A stretch of DNA of 64,000 nt from Ruania alkalisoli (lineage in GTDB: Bacteria; Actinomycetota; Actinomycetes; Actinomycetales; Beutenbergiaceae): contig NZ_CP063169.1 of NCBI RefSeq assembly GCF_014960965.1, forward strand, positions 3,195,581-3,259,580. Reading direction: 5' to 3'. The notes under the pieces are model-generated. The model did not search any database, had not been told where the DNA came from, and worked only from the letters and a program-made list of their open reading frames with translations. A program made the position numbers and the translations under genes. Of this stretch, positions 14,881 to 40,366 are shown piece by piece. Within the stretch, counting starts at the first letter, position 1. Each line of letters opens with the position of its first letter.

Positions 14881-14955
14881 TGATAGCATCTGTGAGTCAG
14901 GATTCCTACCCCTCGGACCGAACGAGTCCGACGACGCCGATCGAGAGCCGCAGCG

Positions 14956-16404: not shown

Positions 16405-16420
16405 CCTGTCGACTACCTCA

Positions 16421-16449: not shown

Positions 16450-16504
16450 GTACGGGTGTGTTTACGGTAGGGGTGCACCACTTCCGATGTGAAGAAGGAG
16501 CACC

Positions 16505-17056: not shown

Positions 17057-17092
17057 CGCTGCTGCCCAGATCCGGCACACTCCCCATCCCGT

Positions 17093-24422: not shown

Positions 24423-24506
24423 GGGGCGGCAAGCAGCGTAGACGATGAGCCGGGGGCTGGTAGGGCCACACCATTCGTCATGAAGGCTCGGGCCGACCTC
24501 ATGGTT

Positions 24507-24525
24507 GAGTTATTTCTCATAACTC
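24507..24525. repeat. Short AT-rich inverted repeat
   Basis: GAGTTAT (24507-24513) and ATAACTC (24519-24525) form a perfect 7-bp hairpin with a five-base loop. It lies after the DUF885 gene and before the orphan secreted-protein gene and may end the former or control the latter. Confidence 0.5.
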
Positions 24526-24556
24526 GATCGGGCGTTCCATGTTATACGATTACTCC

Positions 24557-24585
24557 TTGACACAGGAATCACCCTCCCGTAAACA
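24557..24585 (+). promoter_or_regulatory. Candidate promoter of the orphan secreted protein
   Basis: TTGACA (24557-24562), a 17-base spacer and TAAACA (24580-24585), about 120 bp before ATG 24708. The leader in between contains GAGGTTTTAACCTC (24620-24633), a 6-bp inverted repeat. The region is clearly poorer in GC than its surroundings. Confidence 0.45.
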
Positions 24586-24707
24586 TGGACGAAATCGCCG
24601 CGATCCTTGGCTTCAGATGTGAGGTTTTAACCTCTAATTCGACGATGGCGGCGACGAAATCCGCGACCTCATCCAGCCAATGAGAGTTACAGGAAGGACC
24701 TCCAGTC

Positions 24708-25766: not shown

Positions 25767-25949
25767 GCAAGCGTTGGCACGATCCGGATCCCGGAGTGGC
25801 ACTGACCGCAAGCCAAGACTTCATACAGGCTGGCGCCACGGGGATCGTGACAACGGGGAAGTGCTACTCGCGTCGGCACCAGGCGCACCTTCGCAGTGCG
25901 ACGCACCTACGGAGCCGCCCCATCTGAGTTCCAAATAGGGCAGCTCCGT

Positions 25950-26624
25950 CGCCGATCAGTTGGTGCAGGTGGCGTAGTCCGGGCTCACGGTGACGTCGAC
26001 GCGACCACCGCCCGGTTCAAAGGCGATGCAGCGCGTTTCCTCCGCCGTTCCGTCAGGGCTAGTGCCGCGGTACTCCAACAACTGACGATCGGACCGCTTC
26101 AGGCTGAACGGCTCCGTGTACGAGAACCAGTCACCATCATCAAACCGGTACTCGAGCCCACCGATACCAGAACCACCATCCTCGGCAGACAAGGCCACCG
26201 TGACCCAGTTGTTCCCCACATAATGAGCAGTGGTCACCGGCGCCGCCTCCGGCTCCTCACCCCCGGCGCAGTCGGCACTGGCCTGACACGTCACCTCAAC
26301 CTCGAAGAGCCGCACCCGCCCATCACTGCTCGCGATTCCATCAAGTCGCAGGGCTGTGGCAGAAACCGCACTGAACTCATGCACCGTCCTCGCCGCCACA
26401 TTCCCCCGGATCTCGGCAACCGTGACCCAATCGCCATCAACCTGCGCAGAAATGTCATAGTCAGCCAGCTCATAATTCAGGTACTGGTACAGACTCACCG
26501 TGTCAACAACTGCCTCCTCCGCGAACACGATCTCCAACCACGGATCGACATCATCCGCAGCAGAAATCCACCTACTCGTCACACTCGTCGTGTCACCATC
26601 AATCACCTGACCCGGACCGTAAGC
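25950..26624. repeat. 675-bp direct repeat, copy A
   Basis: Matches 29092-29766 at an offset of 3142, with a single difference seen (25989 G versus 29131 C), which is silent. It covers the shared 3' end of the two surface-protein genes. Confidence 0.95.
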
Positions 26625-29012
26625 ATTAAGCACGCTCGAGGCTTCCGCGGACGCCCCGTTCGCCTCCAACGCGTAGTTGAAATAATCTCCCGGTTCCGGT
26701 TGGTTCTCCTCGGTGGAGAACTCGTGGGACCACTCGGTCGTGGCGCCACCCGCGAGCGCGAAGCAGTCCTGGGCCACCGCGGTGACCGTCACAGTGCCCG
26801 TGCCCGGATGAATCCCTGGCGTCAGGACTGCATCATCCACGAGATAGTCAACACCCGTGACGTCGGGAACTGTGTAAGTGTCAGCGGCGGCACCATCCTG
26901 GTCGTCGAACGTGACAGCCGCGGGAGTCACGACCCCGGGCTCGCTCCCTCGTGACAGAGTTGCCTGGAGGACCTCCGACCCTCGGGCGAAATAGAGCCTG
27001 CCATCGGTGTGCGGCAGCACGTAGTTGCCGTGGGTGAGCACCTCGTACTCGCCACTCACAGGGTCCAGGGAGAAGATGACCCCGCCCCCAGTCGATCCGT
27101 ACAACAGCCCGTCCGGGCCGAGGGAGAGCTTCGGGTAGCCGTGATTGCCACTACCTGCTCCCACGATCTCGACGCTCTGTTCCACCTCACGAGTCTCCGG
27201 GTCGAACCGGAATACCGTGCCGTCTCCAGTCAGTGCCCACAACTGCCCGTCGTCGCGCGCCACGAGGGACGAGATCGTCGACATCCCGGGAATCGGGGCG
27301 GCCTGCCACTCGATGGTGTCGGTGGTCAGATCCCAGGCGACGATGAGCGCCTCGTCTACGATCGGGTCGGCCCCAGGGGTGTTGTTCGAGGTGCCGATGT
27401 ACAGCGTGTCGCCGACGACGGCCATTGAGATGAGTTGGTGGCCGTGGAGGATCTCACCGAAATCCTGTACCTCGCCGGTCGATGGCGTGTGGAACACCAG
27501 TCGGCCGCTGGGGTGGCCGCGCTTGCCGAGGCTCCCTGCGGCGATCCGCTCACCCGCCTCCGCCAGCGCGAAGAGCCGGTCCTGGTTGTGCTCGTTCAGG
27601 CTGAAGACGACGCGCGGGTTGCCGTTGTTGATCGGCAGGGCCGGGTCGTGCCTGCGCAGCACCGCTCCGGTGTAGGTGCCCATGTAGATCGCATCGTCCG
27701 TGGTCAGGTACTGGTGGACCTGTGCGGCGAGCGCTGCCGACTGAACCCTCATCTCATCAGCGTCAGGGTCATAGGTGACCAGATTGCCGCTGTTAAAACT
27801 CAGCCCGACGTACACCTCACCATCGAGCCCACTTCCGAAGGCCCGCACGGTGATCGGCGTCATGGGCAACTCCGCGGTGGAGTCCACGTTGCCCCGACCA
27901 GTTTCGGGGTTGAATCGCCATATCTCCCCCCGCCTCCCCATGCCGACGATCGACTCACCCGGGTAGCTCTCGTCGTCAAGATCGATCAGGCCCATGCCAC
28001 CACCACCCAGGTAGTAGTTCACGGCCTGGTCCCAGCCGGCATCGGCGATCTCCCGGGTGGTGACGTCGAAGGAGTACAGCCGGTTCTCGACGTTGTTGGC
28101 GAAGTAGACCAACCCGTCCTCCGAGACCTCGGTCGGCATGCTGGGCGCACTCTTGGGTAGGTGGGCGACCCACTCCCCGACAGACGGATCGTAGACGTGC
28201 CACTCGAGCGAGCCGCCGAAGTAGGCGAAGATCAGACCGTCGCGCCAAGCCATCAGGCTGATGCGGTAGTCACCGGGCGCCATGGTGGGGGGCTGGGGGA
28301 TCTCGGTCCTCGCGCCAGTCTCCAGATCGAGCTTGATGACCCGGGCGGTGCCTTCGGTACCGACGTAGAGGCTGCCTGCTTCGTCGTACGCGACGGCGCG
28401 GGCGTAGTACTCGTTCGGGTCGACTTGGCCGTAGTCGGTGAATTGCTCTGTCGTCGGGTCGTAACTGAAGGCGTGCCCGTTCGGGAACGTGCCCCCGTAG
28501 AGAGTGCCGTCCTCTGCCTCGATGATGCGGGTGATGTGCGACTCGCCCGCGACGGCGTGACCGAGGTTCGTCATCGTGTCGGTCGCAGGGTCGTAACGGA
28601 AGAGCAGAGCCTCGGGCCCCCAGCCAGGGATGTAGACAGTGCCGTCCTGCGCCGTGATCATCGACAGGGAGTCGTTGAGCTCCTCGATTGCGTGGTGGCG
28701 CAGCTGTTCACCGGTCATCGGGTCAATCGCGGCAAACTGCACCGAGTTGCCCGGGCTCCCGCCCTGGACATAGAGGACGGGGCTGCCGTCCGGCAGATAT
28801 CCGGTCGCTGAGACGTTCATCTGCAGCTCGGTGACGGGCACACCCAGGCTCCTGACCGCCACCCCGGTAGTTGGCGGCTCGTCCTGGCATTGCGCGCTGT
28901 ACGGCGCGGGTTCTGCCCGGTCCTCGGTCTGGGCCGCCGCGGGAACCACCGCGCCCATCACGGCGACCGTGGCAGCCAGAGCCGTCACGAGCCATCGTCG
29001 TCGTTGCCTCAC
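25956..29012 (-). CDS. Secreted beta-propeller protein with C-terminal F5/8-type-C and OmpL47-like domains (surface protein 1)
   Basis: 1018 residues. A Sec signal peptide (about 1-27, ending PAAAQ) is followed by roughly 680 residues of propeller-like repeats with phrases such as LLFRYDPATDTMTNLG, EDGTLYGGTFPNGHAFSYD and GSLYVGTEGTARVIKLD. A linker follows, then a discoidin/F5-8-type-C domain of the CBM32 kind (YGPGQVIDGDTTSVTSRWIS, WLEIVFAEEAVVDTVSLYQ). The end is an OmpL47-like Ig-type module (VTVALSAEDGGSGIGGLEYR). No catalytic motif or anchor is seen, so it probably binds a glycan outside the cell. It is a paralogue of the next gene; the last 220 or so residues are identical at protein level. 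It runs opposite to the LacI operon. Confidence 0.85.
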   Translation of the reverse strand: MRQRRRWLVTALAATVAVMGAVVPAAAQTEDRAEPAPYSAQCQDEPPTTGVAVRSLGVPVTELQMNVSATGYLPDGSPVLYVQGGSPGNSVQFAAIDPMTGEQLRHHAIEELNDSLSMITAQDGTVYIPGWGPEALLFRYDPATDTMTNLGHAVAGESHITRIIEAEDGTLYGGTFPNGHAFSYDPTTEQFTDYGQVDPNEYYARAVAYDEAGSLYVGTEGTARVIKLDLETGARTEIPQPPTMAPGDYRISLMAWRDGLIFAYFGGSLEWHVYDPSVGEWVAHLPKSAPSMPTEVSEDGLVYFANNVENRLYSFDVTTREIADAGWDQAVNYYLGGGGMGLIDLDDESYPGESIVGMGRRGEIWRFNPETGRGNVDSTAELPMTPITVRAFGSGLDGEVYVGLSFNSGNLVTYDPDADEMRVQSAALAAQVHQYLTTDDAIYMGTYTGAVLRRHDPALPINNGNPRVVFSLNEHNQDRLFALAEAGERIAAGSLGKRGHPSGRLVFHTPSTGEVQDFGEILHGHQLISMAVVGDTLYIGTSNNTPGADPIVDEALIVAWDLTTDTIEWQAAPIPGMSTISSLVARDDGQLWALTGDGTVFRFDPETREVEQSVEIVGAGSGNHGYPKLSLGPDGLLYGSTGGGVIFSLDPVSGEYEVLTHGNYVLPHTDGRLYFARGSEVLQATLSRGSEPGVVTPAAVTFDDQDGAAADTYTVPDVTGVDYLVDDAVLTPGIHPGTGTVTVTAVAQDCFALAGGATTEWSHEFSTEENQPEPGDYFNYALEANGASAEASSVLNAYGPGQVIDGDTTSVTSRWISAADDVDPWLEIVFAEEAVVDTVSLYQYLNYELADYDISAQVDGDWVTVAEIRGNVAARTVHEFSAVSATALRLDGIASSDGRVRLFEVEVTCQASADCAGGEEPEAAPVTTAHYVGNNWVTVALSAEDGGSGIGGLEYRFDDGDWFSYTEPFSLKRSDRQLLEYRGTSPDGTAEETRCIAFEPGGGRVDVTVSPDYATCTN

Positions 29013-29091
29013 AATTTCTGCCCTCCGTTTACCTCATTGCTGGACCGAATTCCGTACTGCCGGTCTGAGATTCGTCTGTCCACGATTCAGG

Positions 29092-29766
29092 CGCCGATCA
29101 GTTGGTGCAGGTGGCGTAGTCCGGGCTCACCGTGACGTCGACGCGACCACCGCCCGGTTCAAAGGCGATGCAGCGCGTTTCCTCCGCCGTTCCGTCAGGG
29201 CTAGTGCCGCGGTACTCCAACAACTGACGATCGGACCGCTTCAGGCTGAACGGCTCCGTGTACGAGAACCAGTCACCATCATCAAACCGGTACTCGAGCC
29301 CACCGATACCAGAACCACCATCCTCGGCAGACAAGGCCACCGTGACCCAGTTGTTCCCCACATAATGAGCAGTGGTCACCGGCGCCGCCTCCGGCTCCTC
29401 ACCCCCGGCGCAGTCGGCACTGGCCTGACACGTCACCTCAACCTCGAAGAGCCGCACCCGCCCATCACTGCTCGCGATTCCATCAAGTCGCAGGGCTGTG
29501 GCAGAAACCGCACTGAACTCATGCACCGTCCTCGCCGCCACATTCCCCCGGATCTCGGCAACCGTGACCCAATCGCCATCAACCTGCGCAGAAATGTCAT
29601 AGTCAGCCAGCTCATAATTCAGGTACTGGTACAGACTCACCGTGTCAACAACTGCCTCCTCCGCGAACACGATCTCCAACCACGGATCGACATCATCCGC
29701 AGCAGAAATCCACCTACTCGTCACACTCGTCGTGTCACCATCAATCACCTGACCCGGACCGTAAGC
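29092..29766. repeat. 675-bp direct repeat, copy B
   Basis: Second copy of the repeat at 25950-26624, covering the 3' end of the second surface-protein gene. Outside it the two genes are clearly diverged, so the match points to recent gene conversion or segmental duplication. Confidence 0.95.
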
Positions 29767-31923
29767 GCCATATGTGCTGGACGCCGCGGCAGATGCTCCG
29801 TTGTCCGCCAGGGCGTAGTTAGTGGTCGGGTCCGTCGGTTCGGGTTCCGGATCCGGGTCCGGTGCAATCCAGCCCTCGGGGGTCCCCCGGAACACAACCG
29901 TGTCGCGGACGAAGAAGAACCGGCCGTCACCGGTCGCGGTCGCCTCGTTCCCCTCGGTGACGATCTCGACTTCCTGCGTGGCGACATCGATCGTGTAGAC
30001 GCTACCGGCGGCGTTCCCGAGGACCGTGTCCGGATCGAGCATGCTCAGACGGGATCCGGCCCACTGACCAGCTGAACGGGGCTCGCCGAAAATTGACGCG
30101 ACCTCAGTCGTCCGGATCGAGTAGGAACCCGCACCATCTCGCTCGATGTCCAGTTCCAGGATGGTGGCGTCGTTGGCGAACGCCCAGATCCGTTCATCGG
30201 GCAATTCCAGGATCTGGCTGATGCTCGTCACGCCCGACCGAGGCATGGTGACGAAGTCCGTCGTGAGGGTCTCGAGGTCGAAGATGAAAAACCGGGCTTC
30301 CGGATCCGGGTGTTCCACACCCAACTGGTTGCTGGTCGTGCCACCCACAATGACCTCGCGACCGTCGATCTCCTCGTAATGCAGGGATGCGACGGCGTGG
30401 CCCGGCACGGGCTCAGCGCTGTACCGAATGCTCCCGGTCACGGGGTCGAGGATCGTCAAGTGCCCGCCCATGCTCCCCTTGGGCCCCAGGGTGGTGACGG
30501 CCAGATGCTCGCCAACACCGACCATCGCCAGCACCCGCTCCTGGTCATAGGAGTCCAGCCGGGCGAGGCGGATCGGGTTGTACGGGTAGCTCCATTCGGC
30601 CGTGTGGTCGTAGCGCCACACACCGGCGTCCGAGTACCCGCCGATGAACATGGCCGGCGCCCCGCCCTCGACGTCGACCGTACCGATGAACTGGGACTGC
30701 GACGGGCCCGCCAGAGCTTCGGACTCCAATGTCTCAACATCAATCCGCGCCATGACTCCAGGGGTCAAGTAGCCGGCAGCGTACAAGTTGTCGTCGGACC
30801 CCATGCCCAAGGCAGCGATCTTCAAGGCGCCAGCCGATGCCTGGGTCTGCACCCAGCGGAACTCCGCCGTGTCGATGTTGTAGTGCCACATGCGACCGGT
30901 CAGTCCCATCCCCGCAATGGTCGACCCCGGCCACTCGGGATCTTGGAGACGGAGCACTCCGAAGCCGCGAGCACTATTCAGGGAAATCTGGTTGAGGTCG
31001 GTGACCTGAGCCGTCTCACCGGAGGTGAGGTCATAGCTGAACACATCATTCGGGGTGCGGTTCACGTAGTAGACCGTGCCGTCCACGACGTCCGTGATGG
31101 GGCTGGCCTGAACATCGGTGAGCGAATCGCGCCACTCCCCCGCGACGGTGTCGTAAACGACGTACGCATACGCGGGACTGAGGAAGGCGAACAGCAGTCC
31201 GTCGCGGTAGTACATCTCATTGACGTAGGTCTGCTGGCCGGCATACTCGGCGGGCAGTGCGATCTCGGTTCTCGCGCCGGTAGTCACGTTGAGCTCAAAC
31301 AGTCGAGCATTGGTACCGGTCCCGACGTAGAGAGTCCCCTCGCCGTCGAACGCGGTCGAACGTGCATACTGCTCACCCTCGGCGATGGGGCCGAAGTCTT
31401 GGAATCCGCGATCCGGGTGGTAGCTGAAGACATGCCCGCTCGGATACGTCCCGGAGTAGAGCGTCCCGTCGTCAGCGAATGAGGTGAGTCGAGAGATGTT
31501 GGACTCGCCCGAAACCGGGGCGCCAAGGTCGGTGACGTCGTCAGTCGCGGGGTCGTACCTGAACAGATTGGCCCCTGGAGTCTGCCCAGCAGCGTATGCA
31601 GAACCGTCCGGCGAAAGTCCGGTGTAGTTGGACGTCGTCTTGTCGCCGAGGTCGTGGACGGAGATCAGCTCGCCCGTCTCACCCTGGACCACGCTGAGAC
31701 GCGCCGGTTCTCCATACGTCGGGGCATAGACCACGGGCGTGCCGTCGGGCATTGCCCCCATAGCCGCGGTTCGGATGTTCACCGCACTGATCGGTGCCCC
31801 AACTTCATCGATCGAGTAGGAGCCCTCCTCGCTGGCACCCACGGCAGGGACACCACCGGCTAGCAGCGCCAAACCCGCCATCAGTACCACCGGCGCAACT
31901 GTCCTGCTTCTCCTTGTACTCAT
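29098..31923 (-). CDS. Secreted beta-propeller protein with C-terminal F5/8-type-C and OmpL47-like domains (surface protein 2)
   Basis: 941 residues with a signal peptide (about 1-30, ending AVGAS). The propeller region resembles that of surface protein 1 only moderately (NLFRYDPATDDVTDLGAPVS, DDGTLYSGTYPSGHVFSY, GTLYVGTGTNARLFELN). A short Pro/Asp linker (PDPDPEPEPTDPTTN) leads to the F5/8-type-C and OmpL47-like domains, which are identical to those of protein 1. Binding an extracellular carbohydrate is the likely role; no enzyme motif is seen. It is transcribed divergently from the LacI-led import operon, and its upstream region carries a 36-bp perfect palindrome, so joint control is likely. 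The gene for protein 1 lies 85 bp downstream and may be cotranscribed. Confidence 0.85.
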   Translation of the reverse strand: MSTRRSRTVAPVVLMAGLALLAGGVPAVGASEEGSYSIDEVGAPISAVNIRTAAMGAMPDGTPVVYAPTYGEPARLSVVQGETGELISVHDLGDKTTSNYTGLSPDGSAYAAGQTPGANLFRYDPATDDVTDLGAPVSGESNISRLTSFADDGTLYSGTYPSGHVFSYHPDRGFQDFGPIAEGEQYARSTAFDGEGTLYVGTGTNARLFELNVTTGARTEIALPAEYAGQQTYVNEMYYRDGLLFAFLSPAYAYVVYDTVAGEWRDSLTDVQASPITDVVDGTVYYVNRTPNDVFSYDLTSGETAQVTDLNQISLNSARGFGVLRLQDPEWPGSTIAGMGLTGRMWHYNIDTAEFRWVQTQASAGALKIAALGMGSDDNLYAAGYLTPGVMARIDVETLESEALAGPSQSQFIGTVDVEGGAPAMFIGGYSDAGVWRYDHTAEWSYPYNPIRLARLDSYDQERVLAMVGVGEHLAVTTLGPKGSMGGHLTILDPVTGSIRYSAEPVPGHAVASLHYEEIDGREVIVGGTTSNQLGVEHPDPEARFFIFDLETLTTDFVTMPRSGVTSISQILELPDERIWAFANDATILELDIERDGAGSYSIRTTEVASIFGEPRSAGQWAGSRLSMLDPDTVLGNAAGSVYTIDVATQEVEIVTEGNEATATGDGRFFFVRDTVVFRGTPEGWIAPDPDPEPEPTDPTTNYALADNGASAAASSTYGAYGPGQVIDGDTTSVTSRWISAADDVDPWLEIVFAEEAVVDTVSLYQYLNYELADYDISAQVDGDWVTVAEIRGNVAARTVHEFSAVSATALRLDGIASSDGRVRLFEVEVTCQASADCAGGEEPEAAPVTTAHYVGNNWVTVALSAEDGGSGIGGLEYRFDDGDWFSYTEPFSLKRSDRQLLEYRGTSPDGTAEETRCIAFEPGGGRVDVTVSPDYATCTN

Positions 31924-31980
31924 GCTGACCCCTTCCTCTGTTCAAGAGACTGGTGACCGATGGGGGCGCAGGCAGATCTG

Positions 31981-32016
31981 TCGGTCCGATTCGTTCGTAC
32001 GAACGAATCGGACCGA
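31981..32016. promoter_or_regulatory. 36-bp perfect palindrome upstream of surface protein 2
   Basis: Each half reads TCGGTCCGATTCGTTCGT towards the centre between 31998 and 31999, with no mismatch and no loop. It lies 58-93 bp before the start codon of surface protein 2 on the minus strand. A regulator-binding site is the simplest reading; a cruciform or mRNA hairpin is also possible. Confidence 0.7.
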
Positions 32017-32343
32017 ACACCCCTCGCTCGGGCGGCGTTGGGTGCGGTGCACCCGGTGTTCGCCACCCGCGCACGTGCTCGATCTATCCGATGTGGCCGC
32101 AATCTCAACCGGCCAGGTTGCCCGCCGGGCGCGCATCGTCGCATCTGTCTCAACTCCTATGTCGAGGGGGTTCGATACGGCGACCGTAGAGCGTTATACG
32201 ACATAACGACAGAGTGGTTATGCGGATAATCATCTCGGTCGCCCCCGAACCGCTCGTTACCAAACCGTAACCTTACTGTTCGAGGGCGATCTGGCCTGCA
32301 GTGTTGCTCATAACTAGGGCAGAGATGAGCCCTCCTCGATCGA

Positions 32344-32359
32344 TTCGGTCTTGACCGAA
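32344..32359. promoter_or_regulatory. Inverted repeat over a -35-like box upstream of lacI-family gene
   Basis: TTCGGTCTTGACCGAA has 7-bp arms and overlaps TTGACC (32351-32356). The half-site TCGGTC also occurs in the 36-bp palindrome, so the same regulator may bind both. Confidence 0.45.
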
Positions 32360-32437
32360 ATCATCCGAGTGGCCACAGTGTCCACCATCAGGTCCGGTCA
32401 GAGTCCGCTAGTGCGCATAACCAACGGAGGTGGAAGA

Positions 32438-33463
32438 GTGATACAGCGAGCGACTCAGGCAGACGTCGCCCGCCTGGCCGGGGTCAGCCAGGCCACCGTC
32501 TCCCTCGTGGTCAACAGCACTCCGGAGACGAAGTTGCGCGTGGGTGACGAGACGAAGCAACGCGTCCTCTCAGCCATCCAGCGCACTGGATATACGGCAA
32601 ACCCCTTCGCCCAGGGACTGGCCCGCGGGCGCAACCGCATCGTCGGCGTATTCACCTACGAATCGGTCTTTCCCAAAGCCAGCGCAGACTTCTTCTACCC
32701 CTTCCTCCAGGGCATCGAGGCGGGCGCAGAGCAACTCCGCCTCGACATCATGCTGTTCACGAGCGCTCCCGGCCGGAGTGCGGGACGGCGAACCCTGTCC
32801 GAGACCGGTTGGAACCGCGTCGCCATCACTGACGGCTGCATTCTGCTGGGGCGCCAGGACGACAAGTACGACACCGAGGCGATGCTGACCCAGCGATTCC
32901 CCTTCGTCTTCGTCGGACGACGGGAGTCGGGCAACGAACCTGTCCCCTTCGTCGGTGCGGACTACCGAGCCGCGACCCGCGAGGCGGTCGATCACCTGCT
33001 GAAGCTAGGGCACCGCCGAATCGCCTTCCTCGGCGATCTTGGCCAGTCCGAGTCAGCGATCGACCGAGTCGCCGGCTACCGGGACGCGATGACAGCGGCG
33101 GGTCTGCGCCCCATGCTCTTCAGCAGCGAAGCGTTCTCGGCAGACGAAGCGGTGAGCCTCATCATCGACAACGCAGCCACCGCCGCTGTGCTCGGAGCTG
33201 ACTACCGGGCCGAGGAGATCCGCACGGTGGCAGCAGCTCGCGGCGTGGATGTCCCGAACGACCTGTCGCTCGCCATCCTCGGTCAACCGACCACTGCACT
33301 AACCGACGAGCACGTCTGGACCGGCTTTCGCATTCCCCGAGAGGAGATGGGCCTGAAGGCTCTCCTCCTGCTTGCGGGCCAGATTGAAGAGAAAGCGGAC
33401 TTGGAGCTCCAACAACTCCTGCCGTGCAAATTTGTCGAAGGAGAGACGGTGGCTGCACTGTGA
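32438..33463 (+). CDS. LacI-family transcriptional regulator
   Basis: 341 residues from GTG 32438, with GGAGG seven bases upstream; the longer frame from TTG 32351 starts inside a palindrome and is rejected. The N-terminal DNA-binding domain is ATQADVARLAGVSQATVSLV with the hinge-side GYTANPFAQGLARGR. The periplasmic-binding-protein-like sensor domain follows (VGVFTYESVFPKASADFFYP, HLLKLGHRRIAFLGDL, GYRDAMTAAGLRP). It overlaps the oxidoreductase gene by 4 bp and leads the operon, so it most likely senses the imported or processed compound and controls this operon and the divergent surface proteins. Confidence 0.93.
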   Translation: MIQRATQADVARLAGVSQATVSLVVNSTPETKLRVGDETKQRVLSAIQRTGYTANPFAQGLARGRNRIVGVFTYESVFPKASADFFYPFLQGIEAGAEQLRLDIMLFTSAPGRSAGRRTLSETGWNRVAITDGCILLGRQDDKYDTEAMLTQRFPFVFVGRRESGNEPVPFVGADYRAATREAVDHLLKLGHRRIAFLGDLGQSESAIDRVAGYRDAMTAAGLRPMLFSSEAFSADEAVSLIIDNAATAAVLGADYRAEEIRTVAAARGVDVPNDLSLAILGQPTTALTDEHVWTGFRIPREEMGLKALLLLAGQIEEKADLELQQLLPCKFVEGETVAAL

Positions 33464-35076
33464 GTAAGGCTCTGATCACGGACATCCTGGTCGTCGGCGG
33501 CGGACTGGGTGGGGTCGCGGCGGCGCTCGCCGCGCTCGAGGCAGGTCGGGACGTCATCCTCGTCGAGCAGTACGACTGGCTGGGCGGACAGCTCACGTCT
33601 CAGGCTGTACCACTGGACGAGCATCCGTGGATCGAAGAGATGGGGGCGACGCGGCGCTACCGGCGCCTCCGCGACGGGATCCGCGACTACTACCGCGCGC
33701 ACTTCCCGCTGACAGCAGCAGCACGTGAGCATCCGCATCTGAACCCGGGAGCGGGCACGGTATCGAAGCTCTGCTCGGAGCCGCGTGTGAGCGTCGAGGT
33801 CATCGATTCGATGCTGGCTCCATGGCTGTCGGCCGGTCACCTGCGACTCATCCAGCCGGCAGTCGCGATCGGGGCAGATGTCGACGGCGATCGCGTCCGA
33901 GCCATCCAGGTGCGGCGGTTGACCAACGACGAAGAGATCACGATCTCCGCACGCTACGTGCTCGACGCCACCGAAACGGGCGAACTCCTCCCGCTGACTG
34001 GCACGGAGTACGCCACCGGTTTCGAGTCGCGGCACGAGACGGGTGAGCCCAGCGCTCCCGAGGAGGCCCAACCGGACAACTGGCAGGCGCTCAGCGTGTG
34101 CTTCGCGGTGGACTACGTGGACGGCGACCACACCATCGACCGGCCTGAACAGTACGACAAATGGCGCGCCGTCGAACCGGACTTCTGGTGGGGACCACTG
34201 CTCGGTCTGGTGTCACCGCACCCGCGGACCCTCGAGGCGGCGCCACGCGCCTTCGTACCAAACACCGATGAGGACCCGCTGACGATCGAAGCGGACCAGA
34301 GCAAGGACCCGGGGGACCTCAACTTGTGGATCTACCGCCGGATCGCGGCCCGCAAGCTCTTCACCCCCGGCTTCTACGACAGTGACATCACACTGGTGAA
34401 CTGGCCATCGATCGACTACTTCGAGGCCCCCGTATCGGACGTCCCCGCCGACGTCGCGGCCTCCCGCTTGCACGACGCGCGGCAGCTGAGCCTCTCGATG
34501 CTCTACTGGCTGCAAACCGAGGCCCCGCGACCTGACGGTGGCAAGGGCCTGCGGGGACTGCGACTCCGGCCTGACGTCATGGGAACCTCCGACGGACTGG
34601 CCCAGGCTCCATACATCCGCGAATCCCGCCGCATCAAGGCGCTCACCACGGTCACTGAGAACGACGTGTCGATGACAATCCGGGGAGACGCCGGCGCACG
34701 GCAATTCCTCGACTCGGTCGGCATCGGCATGTACCGGATCGACCTTCACCCGTCCACGGGCGGGGACAACTACATCGACGTTCCCTCCTGCCCTTTCCAG
34801 ATCCCGCTCGGAGCACTGATCCCGCAACGGATGCGCAACCTGCTACCGGCAAACAAGAACATCGGTACCACCCACATCACGAATGGGTGCTACCGACTCC
34901 ACCCCGTCGAATGGAACATCGGCGAGGCCGCTGGAGCCCTAGCGGCAATCTGCATCGAGGACGGCGTTGAGCCGGCGCAGGTCCACGAAGACCGCTCACG
35001 CCTCGAACAGTTCCAGAACGCGTTGGTTGACCAAGGAATCGAGCTCAGCTGGCCGGAGGGGGTCGTCGGCTACTGA
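33460..35076 (+). CDS. FAD-dependent oxidoreductase (FAD_oxidored / PF12831-like)
   Basis: 538 residues from GTG 33460. The N-terminal dinucleotide fold is ILVVGGGLGGVAAALAALEA with the ribose-binding Glu in VILVEQYDWLGGQL. YVLDATETGELLPLTGTEY is the second FAD contact typical of PF12831 proteins, and NIGTTHITNGCYRLHPVEWN near the end closes the FAD site. Members oxidise diverse alcohols or amines or act as unknown reductases; no signal peptide is seen, so it works in the cytoplasm. Its place directly after the regulator suggests the first step on the imported compound. Substrate unknown. Confidence 0.88.
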   Translation: MSKALITDILVVGGGLGGVAAALAALEAGRDVILVEQYDWLGGQLTSQAVPLDEHPWIEEMGATRRYRRLRDGIRDYYRAHFPLTAAAREHPHLNPGAGTVSKLCSEPRVSVEVIDSMLAPWLSAGHLRLIQPAVAIGADVDGDRVRAIQVRRLTNDEEITISARYVLDATETGELLPLTGTEYATGFESRHETGEPSAPEEAQPDNWQALSVCFAVDYVDGDHTIDRPEQYDKWRAVEPDFWWGPLLGLVSPHPRTLEAAPRAFVPNTDEDPLTIEADQSKDPGDLNLWIYRRIAARKLFTPGFYDSDITLVNWPSIDYFEAPVSDVPADVAASRLHDARQLSLSMLYWLQTEAPRPDGGKGLRGLRLRPDVMGTSDGLAQAPYIRESRRIKALTTVTENDVSMTIRGDAGARQFLDSVGIGMYRIDLHPSTGGDNYIDVPSCPFQIPLGALIPQRMRNLLPANKNIGTTHITNGCYRLHPVEWNIGEAAGALAAICIEDGVEPAQVHEDRSRLEQFQNALVDQGIELSWPEGVVGY

Positions 35077-35119
35077 TCAGCGCACCACTCATTCCCTTCA
35101 AGGACGAAAGAGGAGACCC

Positions 35120-36400
35120 ATGAGGAACAGGACAGTGATAGCCGCCAGCTTCGCGAGCGTGCTCGCGCTCGCAGCGTGCGGATCAGGTGACGACGGCGGC
35201 GGCGAGCCGTCGGGTTCAGGCAGTGACAACGGTGCCATCACCGGCGAGGTCACCATGTGGTACCCGCCCATCGCCGGCGAGGGCGAGCGGGAGTTCTGGG
35301 ACACCAAGATCGCCGAGTTCAACGCGGAGTATCCGGAGGTCGACGTCACCGTCGAGATCGTGCCCTGGGACGGGCGTGCAGAACGGTTGCAGACCGGGAT
35401 CGCCGGCAACACCACACCGGACGTCACGTACGTCCTGCCGGCAGACGTCTACTCTTACGGCAACGAGGGCATCTTCGCGGACGTCTCCGAGATCATCGCC
35501 GCGGAGCAGGACGACTTCCTCCCGAGCGCATTGGAGACGATGAGCCTCGACGGCACGCTCTACGCGGTACCCACACTCGTCGGGATGTCGACGACCATCT
35601 ACGTCCGGGACGTGTGGGACGCCATCGGCGTAGCCGAGGAGGACTATCCCACCACCTTCGAAGAGGTCCGCGAGTACGCCCCGATCCTCAAGGAGGAGGG
35701 CTACTACATCACCCAGTATGACGCAGCCCCGACGATGACCCTGAACGGCAGTTTCTACCCGATGCTGTGGGCATCCGGGGGCCGGGTGATCGACGAGAAC
35801 GGAGAGGTCACCGTCAATGGACCCGAGGGCGTCGAGGCCCTCGAGTTCCTCACATGGCTGGTCGAGAACGACTACACGCCGCAGGATGCACTCACCACGG
35901 ATCTCCCGGTCGAGACGAGCCCCATCGCGCGCGGCGAGGTGGGCATGCTCTTCGCACGCTCGGTCGCCTCGCTGACCCAGTACGGCGTCACCGAGGATCA
36001 GCTGGTCGTCGGTCCACCCATCGCAAACACGGAGTCGACGAGCTACGGGAACGTCGGCGGCTACGCTCTCTTCGCGGACTCCGCCGACAACGCGGCCGCG
36101 CACGAGTGGATGCGGTACATCACCAGCCCGGAGTTCCTCGAGGAGTTCCTCCCCGAGCGCGATCAGCTGTCCCCGCGCGTGTCGGTGACCGACCTATACC
36201 CGGAGGGCTCGCCCAACGCCGAGCTGGAGCAGTATCTCGATCGCGGGATCGTCGACCCGAAAGCGCCCGGTGGCACCGAGATCATGAACACCCTCAAGCC
36301 CGCCATCCAGTCGGTGCTGCTGGGCCAGGCTGAACCTCAAGCCGCCCTGGATTCCGCGGCAGAAGAGATCGAAGGCATTCTCGCCCGCTCCGGCGGCTGA
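35120..36400 (+). CDS. ABC transporter substrate-binding lipoprotein (sugar family 1 type)
   Basis: 426 residues from ATG 35120, with AGAGGAG before it. The lipoprotein signal ends in the lipobox LAAC (Cys19), then a Gly/Ser/Asp linker. The fold is that of family 1 carbohydrate-binding proteins: GEVTMWYPPIAGEGEREFW, IAEFNAEYPEVDVTVEIVPW, TPDVTYVLPADVYSYG, FYPMLWASGGRVID and YALFADSADNAAAHEWMRY. It should capture the substrate outside the membrane for the two permeases encoded next. The frame open upstream to 34967 overlaps the oxidoreductase gene and is rejected. Confidence 0.94.
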   Translation: MRNRTVIAASFASVLALAACGSGDDGGGEPSGSGSDNGAITGEVTMWYPPIAGEGEREFWDTKIAEFNAEYPEVDVTVEIVPWDGRAERLQTGIAGNTTPDVTYVLPADVYSYGNEGIFADVSEIIAAEQDDFLPSALETMSLDGTLYAVPTLVGMSTTIYVRDVWDAIGVAEEDYPTTFEEVREYAPILKEEGYYITQYDAAPTMTLNGSFYPMLWASGGRVIDENGEVTVNGPEGVEALEFLTWLVENDYTPQDALTTDLPVETSPIARGEVGMLFARSVASLTQYGVTEDQLVVGPPIANTESTSYGNVGGYALFADSADNAAAHEWMRYITSPEFLEEFLPERDQLSPRVSVTDLYPEGSPNAELEQYLDRGIVDPKAPGGTEIMNTLKPAIQSVLLGQAEPQAALDSAAEEIEGILARSGG

Positions 36401-36461
36401 TGACGGTGCGGCCGCCCACTGGCGGCCGCACCCTGACCCCGGACCTCGAGGAAGGAAGCCC

Positions 36462-37409
36462 ATGGCAGTACAGGAAGTGCGCGGGGTGGGGCACCCGGCA
36501 TCCATGACGGCGGCTGGTACCGACGTGCCGCGCCGCACCCCCCGACGAAGAGCCAGGCGCAAAGCCTCGGCCATCGCCATGATGTTCGTGCTGCCCTACC
36601 TTCTCATCTTCCTCGCTTTCCGGATCGTCCCCGCGTTCGGTGGCATGGGGCTGAGCGTTTCCGACTACTCCCTCAGCGGGGACCTCTCCTACGTCGGGGC
36701 CGAGAACTTCGCCCGGCTCTTCACTGACGACTTGTTCTGGAACGCACTGCGGGTCACCATCGTCTACTCGCTGATCGCCGTCCCGTTGGTCGTCATCGTG
36801 TCACTCTTCATGGCGCACCTGGCGTCCCGGTCGATCCGCGGCATCAAGGTGTACCGAGCCGCGTTCTTCCTTCCAGTCATTACCAGCCTGGTGACGACTG
36901 CGGTCATCTGGCAGTGGATCTACTCGTCTGAAGGGCCGCTCAACTGGTTCCTCGGCGTGTTCGGCATCGGCCCGGTGCCGTGGCTGGCCAGCAGTTTCGC
37001 GGTCTTGCCGTCACTGGCTGTGGTCGCCGTCTGGTCCCGTTTCGGTTACGACATGCTCATCCTCATGGCGGGCATGCTCGACATCCCGCAGGACTACTAC
37101 GAGGCGGCCGGCCTCGACGGAGCCAACGCCTGGCAACGGTTCAGGTACATCACCCTGCCAGGGTTACGACGACCACTGTTCTTCGTCGTCATCTTGGAAA
37201 TCGTGACCTCGTTCCAGGTCTTCGACCTCATCTACGTAATGACCGGCGGTGGTCCGGTCACCGCGAGTTATTCGTTGGTCTTCATGATCTACGACCAGGG
37301 TTTCGGGTACTTCAACTTCGGATACGCGAGCGCCGCTGGCGTGGTCCTGCTCGCGATCACGCTGGTCGTCTCTGCTGTCCAACGCCTCTACCTCAAGGAC
37401 GAAGACTGA
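36462..37409 (+). CDS. ABC transporter permease (MalF/UgpA-like)
   Basis: 315 residues, six membrane segments. The ATPase-contact EAA loop is YYEAAGLDGANAWQRFRYI followed by TLPGLRR. An Arg-rich cytoplasmic N-terminus (PRRTPRRRARRKAS) precedes the first segment. AAGGAAG-type ribosome site in GAGGAAGGAAGCCC. It overlaps the next permease by one base (TGATG). No ATPase gene is in the operon, so the transporter probably uses a shared MsiK-type ATPase encoded elsewhere, as is common in actinomycetes. Confidence 0.95.
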   Translation: MAVQEVRGVGHPASMTAAGTDVPRRTPRRRARRKASAIAMMFVLPYLLIFLAFRIVPAFGGMGLSVSDYSLSGDLSYVGAENFARLFTDDLFWNALRVTIVYSLIAVPLVVIVSLFMAHLASRSIRGIKVYRAAFFLPVITSLVTTAVIWQWIYSSEGPLNWFLGVFGIGPVPWLASSFAVLPSLAVVAVWSRFGYDMLILMAGMLDIPQDYYEAAGLDGANAWQRFRYITLPGLRRPLFFVVILEIVTSFQVFDLIYVMTGGGPVTASYSLVFMIYDQGFGYFNFGYASAAGVVLLAITLVVSAVQRLYLKDED

Positions 37410-38269
37410 TGACAACCGGCACCGTGACCTCTGCACAGAATCCGGCGAAGCGCCGTCCTCGACCGTGGCTGCGACGCAGTTCCGCACATCTGCCGCTCAT
37501 CATCACCGCGGTGGTGACACTATTCCCATTCTTCGTCATGCTCGTGATCTCCGTCCAACCCGGCAGGGCCATCGACCTGCCTGGTTCGTTGTGGCCCGAG
37601 AGTTGGGACTTCAGCGAGTTCACCAGGCTGCTCTCCCGTGGTGAGATGACGACCTGGATCGTCAACACGGCGATCTATTCCGTGGTGTCGGTCGTCCTCG
37701 TGCTGGCACTGGCTTCCATGGCCGCCTACGCCTTCGCCAAGCTGAGCTTCCCCGGCCGGAGAGCGGTCTTCCTGTTGATGGTCGCGATGCTCATGGTCCC
37801 CTACCACCTCACGCTGATCCCGAAGTTCATCATGGTCTCCGAGATGGGTGGCCTCAACAGCCACTGGGGCCTGATCCTGCCTACGCTCGCCAATGTCCAG
37901 GCGCTGTTCCTCATGCGCCAGTTCATTGCCGGCATCCCCAATGAGCTGATGGAGGCCGCGCGGATCGACGGCGCAGGAGAATTCCGAATATTCTGGCAGA
38001 TCATTCTGCCGCAGACCAAGCCGATTCTCGCGACGCTGGGGGTCTTCGTATTTCTATGGCACTGGAACGACTTCCTGTGGCCGTTGGTGGCGAACACCGA
38101 GTCAGCGATGTACACGCTCACGGTCGGCCTTTCGTCTCTCAACGAGGAGCAGACGTCGCTCGCAGTGACCATGGCCGGCGCCGTGATCACCTTTGTCCCG
38201 ATCTTCGTCATCTTCCTGCTCCTGCAGCGGTACTTCGTCCGTGGCGTAGCAATGAGCGGGATCAAGTGA
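37409..38269 (+). CDS. ABC transporter permease (MalG/UgpE-like)
   Basis: 286 residues from ATG 37409, which shares its A with the previous stop. Six membrane segments are seen, and the EAA loop reads LMEAARIDGAGEFRIFWQII followed by LPQTKP. It pairs with the preceding permease to form the channel. The next gene starts at GTGA over its stop, so the operon continues without a break. The open frame upstream to 36980 is a shadow of the first permease. Confidence 0.95.
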   Translation: MTTGTVTSAQNPAKRRPRPWLRRSSAHLPLIITAVVTLFPFFVMLVISVQPGRAIDLPGSLWPESWDFSEFTRLLSRGEMTTWIVNTAIYSVVSVVLVLALASMAAYAFAKLSFPGRRAVFLLMVAMLMVPYHLTLIPKFIMVSEMGGLNSHWGLILPTLANVQALFLMRQFIAGIPNELMEAARIDGAGEFRIFWQIILPQTKPILATLGVFVFLWHWNDFLWPLVANTESAMYTLTVGLSSLNEEQTSLAVTMAGAVITFVPIFVIFLLLQRYFVRGVAMSGIK

Positions 38270-39252
38270 CCCGGATCGATCTCTCCGCGACACCCGGGCT
38301 GCTCGAACTGCTCTTCACCGAGGGGCAACTCGAGGAGCTCCGGTCGCTCGGAGAGCTCCACCTGCATCTCGATCCCGCGCACCTCGCCACCGAGCTGGCG
38401 GGCAGCACGCTCGATGTGGTCGTCACCACGTGGGCGACGCCGCCCGTCCGAGAATGGACCGGCGGCAGGGCACCGAAGCTTCTCGCCCACACCGGCGGAA
38501 CGGTGCGTCCGCTGTTCGGCGACGACGGCGTCCCAGCGGGTTGCTTCGTCGTGCAGGCATCGGCTGCCATGGCCGATGGCGTCGCTGAGCTCGCGCTGGC
38601 AATGTGCCTCGTTCTGCTGCGACGGCTGCACACTTTCGACCGTGCATTGCACGGCGCGGAAGGCTGGTCTGCAGTCGCCGACGTGCACGGCCGCGAGCTA
38701 GCCCACCAGCGGATCGGCATAGTCGGCGCGTCCCGCACCGGACGAGCGTTCATCCGGATGCTGGCGGGCGTAGGCGCCCTGAAAATTCGGGTGTACGACC
38801 CCTACCTCACCATGGCCGAGGCTGCTCGGCTCGGAGTGGGCAAGTCCGACCTAATCGAACTGCTTGAGTGGACCGACGTGCTCGTGCTCCACGCTCCCGT
38901 CACGCCGGAGACAACCGGGATGATCGGCCCTGATGAGTTCGCGCTACTGCGAGACGGTGCCGTCGTCGTGAACACGGCACGTGCGGCCCTTATGGACGAG
39001 GCCGCACTGGTGGCCGAGGCCAGATCCGGGCGACTGCACTTCGGGCTGGACGTATTCCACCACGAACCCCTTCCAGTGAACTCCCCGCTGCTGGCTCTGA
39101 ACAATGTCTACATCGCACCACACCGTGGGGCAGCCACCGTCGAGGCACGGCACCAGCAGGGCCAGATCGTCCTCGACGAGATCGCCCGGTTCCAGAAGGG
39201 GCACCCGCTCCACCACCCCGTCACGCCGGAGCTGTACCACCAACTGTCCTGA
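38266..39252 (+). CDS. D-isomer-specific 2-hydroxyacid dehydrogenase family protein
   Basis: 328 residues from GTG 38266 (4-bp overlap). The nucleotide-binding motif is a variant: RIGIVGASRTGRAFIRMLAG. Other family motifs are present: DVLVLHAPVTPETTGMIGPD, VVVNTARAALMDEAAL with the usual Arg in place, DVFHHEPLPVNSPLL, and the catalytic-His region IAPHRGAAT. It should reduce a 2-keto acid or oxidise a 2-hydroxy acid. This is the second such enzyme in the window; the other lies at 9669. In both cases an amide-cleaving enzyme is encoded directly after it. Confidence 0.9.
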   Translation: MTRIDLSATPGLLELLFTEGQLEELRSLGELHLHLDPAHLATELAGSTLDVVVTTWATPPVREWTGGRAPKLLAHTGGTVRPLFGDDGVPAGCFVVQASAAMADGVAELALAMCLVLLRRLHTFDRALHGAEGWSAVADVHGRELAHQRIGIVGASRTGRAFIRMLAGVGALKIRVYDPYLTMAEAARLGVGKSDLIELLEWTDVLVLHAPVTPETTGMIGPDEFALLRDGAVVVNTARAALMDEAALVAEARSGRLHFGLDVFHHEPLPVNSPLLALNNVYIAPHRGAATVEARHQQGQIVLDEIARFQKGHPLHHPVTPELYHQLS

Positions 39253-39288
39253 GCAGATCCACGCAATCCCCGAGAGGAGCCCATCCAT

Positions 39289-40272
39289 ATGGCACGCCAC
39301 GTCACAGTCAGCTCGGTCTCTGCCTACCCGTTCGTGGCCGACCCATCGACCAGCCACAAGGCGCTCCTCGACGCGCTGATCAGCTTCTGGCGCGACCGCA
39401 TCGCCACCGTGTTGCCGGATCGCCCGGACCTGATCGTGCTTCCCGAGCACGGCGACCGGCCGTTGGCGCACTGGTACCCGCTCCAGCACTTCCCCATCGA
39501 GCAGATCGCTGATTTCACTGCTTACAAGGGCAACCTGCTCCGGGACGCACTCAGCGAGGTCGCCGCCGAGCACCGCACGCGCATCGCGTACTCGGGCTAC
39601 CGCATCGACGATGGCGACCGGCTGCGGAACTCGACCCAACTGATCGGCACTGACGGCAGCGTCGTCGGCGCCTACAACAAGAACTACCTCACTATCCCTG
39701 AACACAGAGACCGCGGAGTGACGTACGGCGAGCAGATGCAGGTCATCGAGACGGACATCGGTCGGATTGCACCGGTGATCTGCTTCGACCTCAACTTTGA
39801 GCAAGGTCTGGCCGAGCTGGCACCTCTACGTCCGGAGATCATCCTCTTCTCCTCCGCCTACCACGGCGGCTTCATGCAGCAGTATTGGGCCTACACCTGC
39901 CGGTCCTACTTCGTCGGCTCGGTTCAGCCACCCAACCCCTCAGCGATCATTTCGCCGGTCGGGGATATCGTCGCATCGTCAACCAACTACTACCCGGATG
40001 TCACGACCCGGATCAACCTCGACTATGCCGTGATCCACATCGACGAGAACCACAGGCGTTTCGCCGACATCAAGCGCGCGTACGGCCCGAAAGTACGCAT
40101 TCACGACCCGGGTCAGGTCGGGTTCGTGCTGCTCACCTCCGAGAGCGAGAACCTGTCCGTCGCAGAGGTCATGGCCGAGTTCGGGCTCGTGGACATCGAC
40201 GACTACTTCGGGAGAAGCGAAGGTGCCCGTCGCCGCAGCCTCACCGCCGGGCCGGTGGTGAAGTCAGGATGA
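39289..40272 (+). CDS. Nitrilase superfamily carbon-nitrogen hydrolase
   Basis: 327 residues. The Glu-Lys-Cys triad is complete: Glu53 (VLPEHGDRP), Lys131 (YNKNYL) and Cys165 (VICFDLNF). It hydrolyses an amide, carbamoyl group or, less often, a nitrile. AGAGGAG precedes the ATG. The C-terminal 50 residues (EVMAEFGLVDIDDYFGRSEG and a basic tail) are extra to the core. It is the last gene of the operon after the dehydrogenase. The subgroup cannot be assigned by eye. Confidence 0.9.
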   Translation: MARHVTVSSVSAYPFVADPSTSHKALLDALISFWRDRIATVLPDRPDLIVLPEHGDRPLAHWYPLQHFPIEQIADFTAYKGNLLRDALSEVAAEHRTRIAYSGYRIDDGDRLRNSTQLIGTDGSVVGAYNKNYLTIPEHRDRGVTYGEQMQVIETDIGRIAPVICFDLNFEQGLAELAPLRPEIILFSSAYHGGFMQQYWAYTCRSYFVGSVQPPNPSAIISPVGDIVASSTNYYPDVTTRINLDYAVIHIDENHRRFADIKRAYGPKVRIHDPGQVGFVLLTSESENLSVAEVMAEFGLVDIDDYFGRSEGARRRSLTAGPVVKSG

Positions 40273-40353
40273 TCTAGGTACCCCACCCGCCACTTTACGA
40301 AGGCGACCCCAGAGAATTGGCACGGCCACGGCGGCGACCCGGCACCGACGGCG

Positions 40354-40359
40354 TAAGGT
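40354..40359 (+). promoter_or_regulatory. -10 box of maf (leaderless pattern)
   Basis: TAAGGT ends seven bases before GTG 40367. Confidence 0.4.
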
Positions 40360-40366
40360 CACCCAT

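What the first reader, a model, noticed from the sequence alone, without database searches (positions are those of the whole stretch)
25956..40272. Candidate uptake-and-breakdown locus: twin secreted propellers facing a LacI/FAD oxidoreductase/ABC importer/2-hydroxyacid dehydrogenase/nitrilase operon
Two giant secreted carbohydrate-binding-type proteins with no enzyme domain are divergent from a seven-gene operon with tightly overlapping genes. The operon joins a sugar-type importer without ATPase to an FAD oxidoreductase, a dehydrogenase and an amide hydrolase. No glycoside hydrolase is present. I know of no described pathway with this set; an amide- or amino-bearing polymer or sugar acid would fit.
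Basis: inference. Interest (0 to 1): 0.65.

Follow-up and report, generated by a model that had tools for sequence, protein, structure and literature searches.

The report
Glycan uptake island with secreted double-propellers
An actinobacterium carries a DNA island whose two secreted propeller-shaped proteins travel with a matching sugar importer and three enzymes, probably a system for feeding on an unidentified sugar polymer with proteins that the searched databases do not describe.

Summary
Two secreted-looking proteins (1018 and 941 aa) face a seven-gene lacI–FAD–SBP–permease–permease–2-hydroxyacid dehydrogenase–nitrilase operon; Pfam finds no glycoside hydrolase or polysaccharide lyase among ten genes scanned. 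The block lies in a ~16-kb lower-GC island (0.635 against 0.690), absent at that site in three of seven congeners and replaced by an alternative version in two. Occultella glacieicola has the whole arrangement, its two propellers fused into one 2011-aa ORF.

Propeller and importer are linked: in 24 family genomes, 13 of 13 permeases at least 49% identical to this one lie within 8.1 kb of a propeller; 0 of 8 at 42–44% do. Conversely, 14 of 27 propeller clusters lack that permease, and the nitrilase orthologue is in 2 of the 24 genomes. Nitrilase, dehydrogenase, importer and propeller also sit together in three Jiangellaceae-family genomes and Georgenia.

The propeller part is predicted as a double propeller (pLDDT 91.7) with invariant Tyr/Tyr/Arg and no conserved His, unlike PL24/25/42 lyases. 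Sister loci carry N-acetylhexosamine genes. Best reading: glycan capture or cleavage, import and oxidation. Substrate and propeller catalysis are unproven.

The parts
24423..40366 (.). Lower-GC island (acquired, or lost in relatives) between a DUF885-like gene and the gene at 40367
   Evidence: GC 0.635 vs 0.690; the two flanking genes adjoin in congeners G003, G005, G007; alternative content at the same site in G004 and G006
25956..29012 (-). P1: secreted-looking tandem beta-propeller + F5/8C + OmpL47-like protein, 1018 aa
   Evidence: 80% identical over 880 aa to the second part of the fused Occultella ORF
29098..31923 (-). P2: secreted-looking tandem beta-propeller + F5/8C + OmpL47-like protein, 941 aa; upstream of P1 on the same strand
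   Evidence: 76% over 817 aa to the first part of the fused Occultella ORF; model of residues 29-690, pLDDT 91.7
25956..26624 (-). 3' module (F5/8C + OmpL47-like) of P1, identical at 668 of 669 nt to the 3' end of P2
   Evidence: two copies in the genome; the parts before it are 31% identical in protein
29098..29766 (-). 3' module of P2, second copy of the near-identical 669 nt
31981..32016 (.). 36-bp perfect palindrome, 57 bp upstream of the P2 start codon
   Evidence: single match in the window with up to 3 mismatches, 0.00 expected in shuffles; no such palindrome in the Occultella interval
32217..32421 (.). Three LacI-type operator candidates (GTTATGCGCATAAC-like, at 32217, 32301, 32408)
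   Evidence: the only 3 matches with up to 3 mismatches in 64 kb (0.55 expected; 2 of 100 shuffles reach 3); one weak match each upstream of lacI in Occultella and G007; pattern chosen after looking
32438..33463 (+). LacI-family repressor, 341 aa
   Evidence: 79% to Occultella
33460..35076 (+). FAD-dependent oxidoreductase PF12831, 538 aa
   Evidence: E 1.6e-103; 85% to Occultella; relatives in 8 of 8 genus genomes, own included, those of G004 and G006 at this same site
35120..36400 (+). Sugar-type solute-binding lipoprotein, 426 aa (LAAC lipobox read by eye)
36405..36432 (+). G+C-rich hairpin (12-bp arms, 4-nt loop) between the SBP gene and the first permease gene
   Evidence: read by eye from the sequence printed; role inferred
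36462..37409 (+). CUT1-type permease 1, 315 aa
   Evidence: clade linked to propellers
37409..38269 (+). CUT1-type permease 2, 286 aa
38266..39252 (+). D-2-hydroxyacid dehydrogenase family, 328 aa
   Evidence: PF02826 E 1.3e-45; TAR, HHEP and APHRGA motifs present
39289..40272 (+). Nitrilase-superfamily hydrolase, 327 aa, E53-K131-C165
   Evidence: the three residues are invariant in 6 aligned homologues and present here

Best explanation
It is a variable, probably acquired, glycan uptake-and-breakdown locus without a recognised glycan-cleaving enzyme. P1 and P2 are secreted (inferred from signal-like N-termini), hold a glycan through their F5/8C modules and, by inference, capture or cut it with a conserved Tyr/Tyr/Arg/Gln site on the tandem propellers. 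The released pieces bind the lipoprotein SBP and enter through the two permeases, powered by an ATPase encoded elsewhere (MalK/MsiK type, inferred). Inside, the FAD oxidoreductase and the hydroxyacid dehydrogenase do redox steps and the nitrilase opens an amide, most simply on an oxidised N-acylhexosamine or a uronamide (inferred). LacI represses both divergent transcripts until an imported inducer binds (inferred). The link of propeller with importer is well supported; the substrate class (N-acetylhexosamine-containing, perhaps sulfated) is a moderate inference from sister loci.
For: Linkage: 13 of 13 permeases with >=49% identity in 24 genomes lie within 8.1 kb of a propeller match, 0 of 8 at 42-44%; three such loci are in the own genome, of which 2.2% lies within 10 kb of a propeller cluster. 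Whole arrangement in Occultella, with P2 and P1 fused in the same order. HADH-SBP-permease-permease-nitrilase plus propeller in 3 of 4 fetched regions of the Jiangellaceae family and, with HADH on the other strand, in Georgenia subflava. An HADH match ends within 120 nt before the nitrilase match in 9 of 80 nitrilase loci, eight of them Paenibacillus or Cohnella. Context of sister loci: NagB-family, amidohydrolase and NanE genes in L080; ROK kinase and NanE at the same site in G004, NagB-family and GlcNAc 2-epimerase genes in the G003 propeller cluster; GH123 in 8 of 84 nitrilase regions, 5 of the 9 HADH-adjacent ones (one scanned by Pfam, the rest by tblastn). Sulfatases (named by reading the translation) beside propellers in both paralogous own loci. 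One paralogous propeller ends in LPETG plus a hydrophobic tail. Two OB_MalK ATPases in the genome, both over 500 kb away.
Against: No enzyme domain is recognised in the propellers, and the folds match only generic propellers among the rows shown. 14 of 27 propeller clusters lack this permease clade within 20 kb. Of the ten genes scanned, none is a NagA, NagB, sulfatase or sugar kinase. In the DNA held (up to 10 kb each side, some contigs short) 76 of 80 nitrilase loci show no propeller, 63 of 80 no HADH, and 79 of 80 no FAD gene; G235 has the nitrilase alone of these genes. Operators were found post hoc, the matches in Occultella and G007 are each reached by chance in 25 and 35 of 200 shuffles, and genome-wide the pattern is no commoner than its reversed control.
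Confidence: 0.6

Rival explanations
1. The propellers are not enzymes but surface or secreted glycan-binding/capture proteins (SusD-like in role); depolymerases are encoded elsewhere, and this locus only captures, imports and processes oligosaccharides.
For: No alignment column has His in more than half of 33 rows, whereas PL24/25/42 propeller lyases share a His-His-Asp triad (passages of PMC10951650). Among the best profile matches in the PDB are double-propeller sensor domains, 3ott and 4a2l. F5/8C modules are attached; a paralogue has an LPETG tail.
Against: One cluster holds five propeller genes (G003) and none of the neighbours that were scanned there (3) or compared by blastp is a depolymerase, though not all were scanned; Tyr158, Tyr402 and Arg435 are invariant and Gln381 is in 32 of 33; at the same site in G004/G006 DUF4127 proteins replace the propellers, one carrying a similar F5/8C module.
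Confidence: 0.45
2. The operon enzymes are a stand-alone pathway for a small amide-bearing or hydroxyacid compound, and their neighbourhood with the propellers is a by-product of island traffic.
For: Nitrilase+HADH occur without a propeller in the held DNA of Paenibacillus and Cohnella loci; LacI-FAD lie next to what reads as a peptide-type ABC importer in G007 (by eye); FAD relatives are in all 8 genus genomes.
Against: The same permease clade tracks propellers; Occultella, three Jiangellaceae-family genomes and Georgenia join nitrilase, HADH, importer and propeller; Paenibacillus/Cohnella nitrilase loci contain GH123 and beta-helix proteins.
Confidence: 0.2
3. The locus serves recycling or remodelling of the cell's own wall or capsule (muropeptide-like, D-lactyl and amide groups) rather than feeding on an external polymer.
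For: The dehydrogenase matches VanH/D-lactate models among others, all below cut-off and below PGDH and glyoxylate reductase; an amidase is present, and NagB/NanE-type genes are in sister loci.
Against: Patchy distribution (nitrilase in 2 of 24 family genomes), island GC, empty sites in congeners, sulfatase-like genes in paralogous loci.
Confidence: 0.08

Closest known systems
Actinobacterial sugar-uptake loci with a CUT1 importer and shared MsiK ATPase (CebE/MsiK and DasABC-MsiK of Streptomyces; starts of abstracts of PMC4890002 and PMC6167110 seen in a search listing; LacI-type control recalled)
   Same: LacI-type regulator, SBP, two permeases, no own ATPase, secreted glycan-directed proteins beside the importer
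   Different: No recognised GH/PL/CE in the locus; double propellers without a dedicated Pfam match; FAD oxidoreductase, 2-hydroxyacid dehydrogenase and nitrilase in place of a glycosidase
Seven-bladed propeller polysaccharide lyases PL24, PL25, PL42
   Same: Propeller fold, conserved Tyr and Arg
   Different: Tandem double propeller of ~660 aa; no conserved His, so no His-His-Asp triad (triad from passages of PMC10951650)
Double-propeller sensor domains of Bacteroides hybrid two-component systems (BT4663, BT4673)
   Same: Two propellers in tandem; BT4663 senses heparin/heparan sulfate by its PDB title
   Different: No kinase part found; free protein with F5/8C and OmpL47-like domains
ong pathway for oxidised chitin (GlcNAc1A deacetylase OngB, deaminase OngC, KdgK; passages of PMC9537276; abstract of PMC12017989)
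   Same: Logic only: oxidised N-acylhexosamine, amide removed, keto acid formed, repressor control
   Different: OngB has a D-aminoacylase-like fold and the importer is SSS type; here a nitrilase and an ABC importer. The analogy is a hypothesis

Membership tests
Propeller lyases PL24/PL25/PL42 | Seven-bladed beta-propeller catalytic domain | tested here: inconclusive
   Double propeller predicted with high confidence; no such lyase among the 50 rows shown per search, which excludes nothing
Propeller lyases PL24/PL25/PL42 | His-His-Asp triad | tested here: not met
   No column of A3 has His in more than half of 33 rows; the maximum is 15
Gram-positive polysaccharide-utilisation locus | Regulator plus dedicated importer | tested here: met
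   LacI, SBP, two permeases
Gram-positive polysaccharide-utilisation locus | At least one recognised glycan-cleaving enzyme | tested here: not met
   Ten genes scanned with Pfam, none GH, PL or CE
CUT1 ABC importer | SBP, two permeases and a MalK-type ATPase | tested here: inconclusive
   First three met; no ATPase in the operon; two OB_MalK ATPases elsewhere in the genome, their use not testable
Nitrilase superfamily (CN_hydrolase) | Glu-Lys-Cys triad | tested here: met
   E53, K131, C165 invariant in A2, present here; roles recalled
Nitrilase superfamily (CN_hydrolase) | Amide or nitrile hydrolysis | not testable with these tools
   Needs an assay; nearest solved structure only 27.5 bits
D-2-hydroxyacid dehydrogenases | NAD-binding domain and Arg/Glu/His catalytic set | tested here: met
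   PF02826 E 1.3e-45; TAR, HHEP, APHRGA; residue roles recalled
PF12831 FAD_oxidored | Score over the curated cut-off across the whole domain | tested here: met
   347.6 bits against 27, profile positions 1-416 of 416
HTCS double-propeller sensors | Histidine-kinase part | tested here: not met
   No kinase domain in P1 or P2 by Pfam or NCBIfam
ong oxidised-chitin pathway | D-aminoacylase-type deacetylase, PLP deaminase, SSS transporter | tested here: not met
   None among the ten genes

The most novel reading that the evidence does not exclude
The tandem propellers are a new family of glycan-cleaving enzymes using a Tyr/Tyr/Arg/Gln site without His, and their imported products are handled by an undescribed oxidative route in which FAD oxidoreductase, nitrilase and 2-hydroxyacid dehydrogenase open an oxidised N-acylhexosamine or uronamide.
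Probability: 0.25. Interest if true: 0.75.

Novelty: new variant of a known kind. Interest (0 to 1): 0.5.

Why it matters
A large secreted-looking protein family without a dedicated Pfam match, with five genes in one cluster of a congener and tied to one permease clade, is a concrete place to look for unrecognised glycan-cleaving or glycan-capturing proteins in actinobacteria. A nitrilase next to a hydroxyacid dehydrogenase in Actinomycetota, Paenibacillus and Cohnella loci with glycan genes points to an amide-opening step in glycan catabolism; two literature searches aimed at it listed no paper that by title or abstract start describes it.

Tried and rejected
Known propeller lyases by structure: Foldseek and VIA-align 2 for the double propeller and the second propeller alone return generic WD40/YncE/Lp49-like propellers; no PL family is in the 50 rows shown, which excludes nothing. 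Model coordinates are not in the Python box (listing), so whether Tyr158, Tyr402, Arg435 and Gln381 meet in one pocket was not tested.

Sequence search of the PDB: P2 alone gave only noise; the profile matched HTCS and WD40 propellers; FAD only by its nucleotide-binding stretch; nitrilase only NIT2-type.

The 36-bp palindrome as a LacI operator: set aside; its centre is TA, it has no second match within 3 mismatches in the window, and it is absent from the Occultella interval.

Muramic-acid (D-lactyl) pathway: considered because of VanH-type scores; PGDH and glyoxylate reductase models score higher, and sulfatase-like neighbours do not fit.

Literature: nothing for DUF4127; Ruania/polysaccharide, propeller-lyase/sulfatase/Actinobacteria (no paper), FAD oxidoreductase/polysaccharide, nitrilase/polysaccharide utilization/hydroxyacid dehydrogenase/ABC (one paper that lacks the word nitrilase) and carbon-nitrogen hydrolase/amino sugar/FAD (nine papers) listed nothing that looks like this gene set. 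Only listings were seen. A claim of absence rests on these searches alone.

Limits and rows dropped. In one search the first look gave more candidates than were scored in 13 of 24 genomes (94 scored), so weaker permeases may be missed; in the own genome one search scored all 132 and gives the same three at >=49%. One search scored at most 5 candidates per genome. The 24 genomes are related, so the 13 are not independent; one propeller row can be a piece of a gene (the own 1262-aa protein gives three, and two G004 rows look like halves of one broken gene), so clusters, not rows, were counted. From alignment A3 I left out propeller matches with an internal stop (those at L060, L063, L066, L069, L070), one that crosses my locus boundary (G000 506524-508563), the near-duplicate L056, and those without a usable locus.

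Full report
WHAT IS THERE. The window is G000:C1:3195581-3259580 of a 4.45-Mb single-contig genome. The finding holds: P1 (25956-29012) and P2 (29098-31923) on the minus strand, and lacI, FAD oxidoreductase, SBP, permease, permease, 2-hydroxyacid dehydrogenase, nitrilase on the plus strand. Junctions of the operon: -4, 43, 61, -1, -4 and 36 nt, so half overlap. A hairpin with 12-bp arms can be read between SBP and permease genes in the sequence printed.

ISLAND. GC is 0.635 in 24423-40366 and 0.690 in the rest of the window. In G003, G005 and G007, three of seven congeners, the DUF885-like gene of the left flank adjoins the gene of the right flank. In G004 and G006 the same site holds another version: lacI (46-47%), FAD (68%), SBP (24-25%), permease(s) (32-35%), and DUF4127 proteins (Pfam for G006, similarity for G004), one with an F5/8C-bearing end 47-51% identical to P1/P2. 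G004 also has a ROK kinase and NanE there. The right flank of G006 was matched by eye. G001 and G002 gave no match to the right-hand protease gene at E<=1e-100 and their sites were not examined. So this is a variable site for a family of such loci; acquisition here or loss elsewhere cannot be told apart with certainty.

P1 AND P2. The last 669 nt are identical at 668 positions and occur twice in the genome, while the parts before are 31% identical in protein: recent copying or gene conversion of the F5/8C + OmpL47-like module. In Occultella one 2011-aa ORF carries a P2-like part and then a P1-like part, the order found here; a third propeller ORF lies beside it. An alignment of 33 propeller regions has invariant Tyr158, Tyr402 and Arg435 (P2 186, 430, 463), and Gln381 (P2 409) in 32 of 33; the other invariants are Gly and Asp, the Asp in repeated blade-type motifs. 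No column has His in more than half of rows. AlphaFold2 gives pLDDT 91.7, pTM 0.89; the second half alone 91.6. PDB matches are generic: best VIA-align Z 28.7, 2.6 A, 294 residues (3bws). Pfam hits of the 33 members are mostly repeat or propeller models, DUF6923 most often (22 of 33). That each half is seven-bladed is inferred from match ranges and lengths; coordinates could not be read.

LINK TO THE IMPORTER. In 24 family genomes (own included) the propeller profile gives matches that I grouped into 27 clusters at E<=1e-15. Permease 1 has 21 matches at E<=1e-65: all 13 with at least 49% identity lie 1.0-8.0 kb from a propeller match; of the 8 at 42-44%, five have none on their contig and three are 144 kb or more away. 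Three of the 13 are in the own genome, of which 2.2% lies within 10 kb of a propeller cluster. Conversely 14 of 27 propeller clusters have no such permease within 20 kb; some of these lie on short contigs.

LINK TO THE ENZYMES. Among 59 genomes, own included, only own and G010 have the nitrilase above 50% identity. Three of these four have HADH-SBP-permease-permease-nitrilase plus propeller; G235 has none of these around its nitrilase. In their held DNA, 4 of 80 have a propeller match (Occultella, Georgenia subflava, two Paenibacillus), 17 of 80 an HADH match, 9 of 80 an HADH match ending within 120 nt before the nitrilase, and 1 of 80 (Occultella) the FAD gene. Recurrent neighbours by clustering are permeases, Gfo/Idh/MocA and enolase-type proteins, beta-helix proteins and GH123.

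SUBSTRATE HINTS. Jiangellaceae-family region L080: NagB-family, amidohydrolase and NanE genes, Gfo/Idh/MocA. G003 propeller cluster: NagB-family and GlcNAc 2-epimerase genes; G004 at the same site: ROK kinase and NanE. Paralogous own loci near 0.49-0.54 Mb and 3.05-3.09 Mb: propellers with sulfatase-like and NagB-like proteins (by reading) and DHDPS-family proteins. Paenibacillus/Cohnella loci: GH123 in 8 of 84 regions. Together these suggest an N-acetylhexosamine-containing glycan, perhaps sulfated, but the window locus itself has none of these genes.

REGULATION. Three sites like GTTATGCGCATAAC lie in 32217-32421, the only ones in 64 kb with up to 3 mismatches (0.55 expected; 2 of 100 shuffles reach three). 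A half-site pattern gives 2 matches, both here, against 0.73 expected (18 of 100 shuffles). Occultella and G007 have one site each upstream of lacI (25 and 35 of 200 shuffles reach one). The pattern was chosen after seeing these sequences; genome-wide its count equals that of the reversed control. This is a hint of shared control, no more.

MECHANISM. Shown: gene content, island, conserved linkage, conserved catalytic-type residues. Inferred: secretion, glycan capture or cleavage by P1/P2, import powered by one of two distant OB_MalK ATPases, redox by FAD and HADH, amide opening by the nitrilase. The nearest described logic is the ong pathway (passages of PMC9537276), whose enzymes are different. 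Whether P1/P2 cut or only bind is about even in my view.

Noticed in passing
31981-32016: A 36-bp perfect palindrome upstream of P2, with no second match in the window, absent from the Occultella interval.
   Followed up: partly
25956-26624 and 29098-29766: 3' modules identical at 668 of 669 nt in two genes that otherwise share 31% protein identity: gene conversion or recent copying with sharp borders.
   Followed up: yes
L177:6907-8826 and 14935-17355; L174:4138-6864: DUF4127 proteins (no paper found) take the place of the propellers at the same chromosomal site in two congeners, one with a similar F5/8C module.
   Followed up: partly
L041:7368-8558 and L042:3438-4628: Two identical 396-aa ORFs that look like IS110-type transposases (recalled, not scanned), in opposite orientation, flank the sulfatase-importer-HADH block of the paralogous locus near 0.52 Mb.
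   Followed up: no
L041:2469-6257: A 1262-aa paralogous propeller protein ends in LPETG plus a hydrophobic stretch, as for sortase anchoring.
   Followed up: partly
L116:13295-15765, L029:11145-12368, L181:8083-9315, L182:15639-16865: Proteins of ~410 aa that read alike and end in an HTH-like stretch lie near propeller genes or importers in four genomes; the one scanned to E 0.001 (L181) has only sub-threshold HTH/MarR matches, two scanned to 1e-5 have none.
   Followed up: partly
24708-25763: A 352-aa secreted-looking protein of low GC3 (0.67) inside the island, without Pfam match; in 24 family genomes only one other, weak match (E 5.4e-4).
   Followed up: yes
L043:13886-15975, L132:4-1610, L153:6306-8363: A pair of an NAD-epimerase-like protein (no Pfam match at 1e-4) and a DHDPS-family protein lies in a propeller locus and, in Caldilineae and Phycisphaerales records, beside the nitrilase.
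   Followed up: partly
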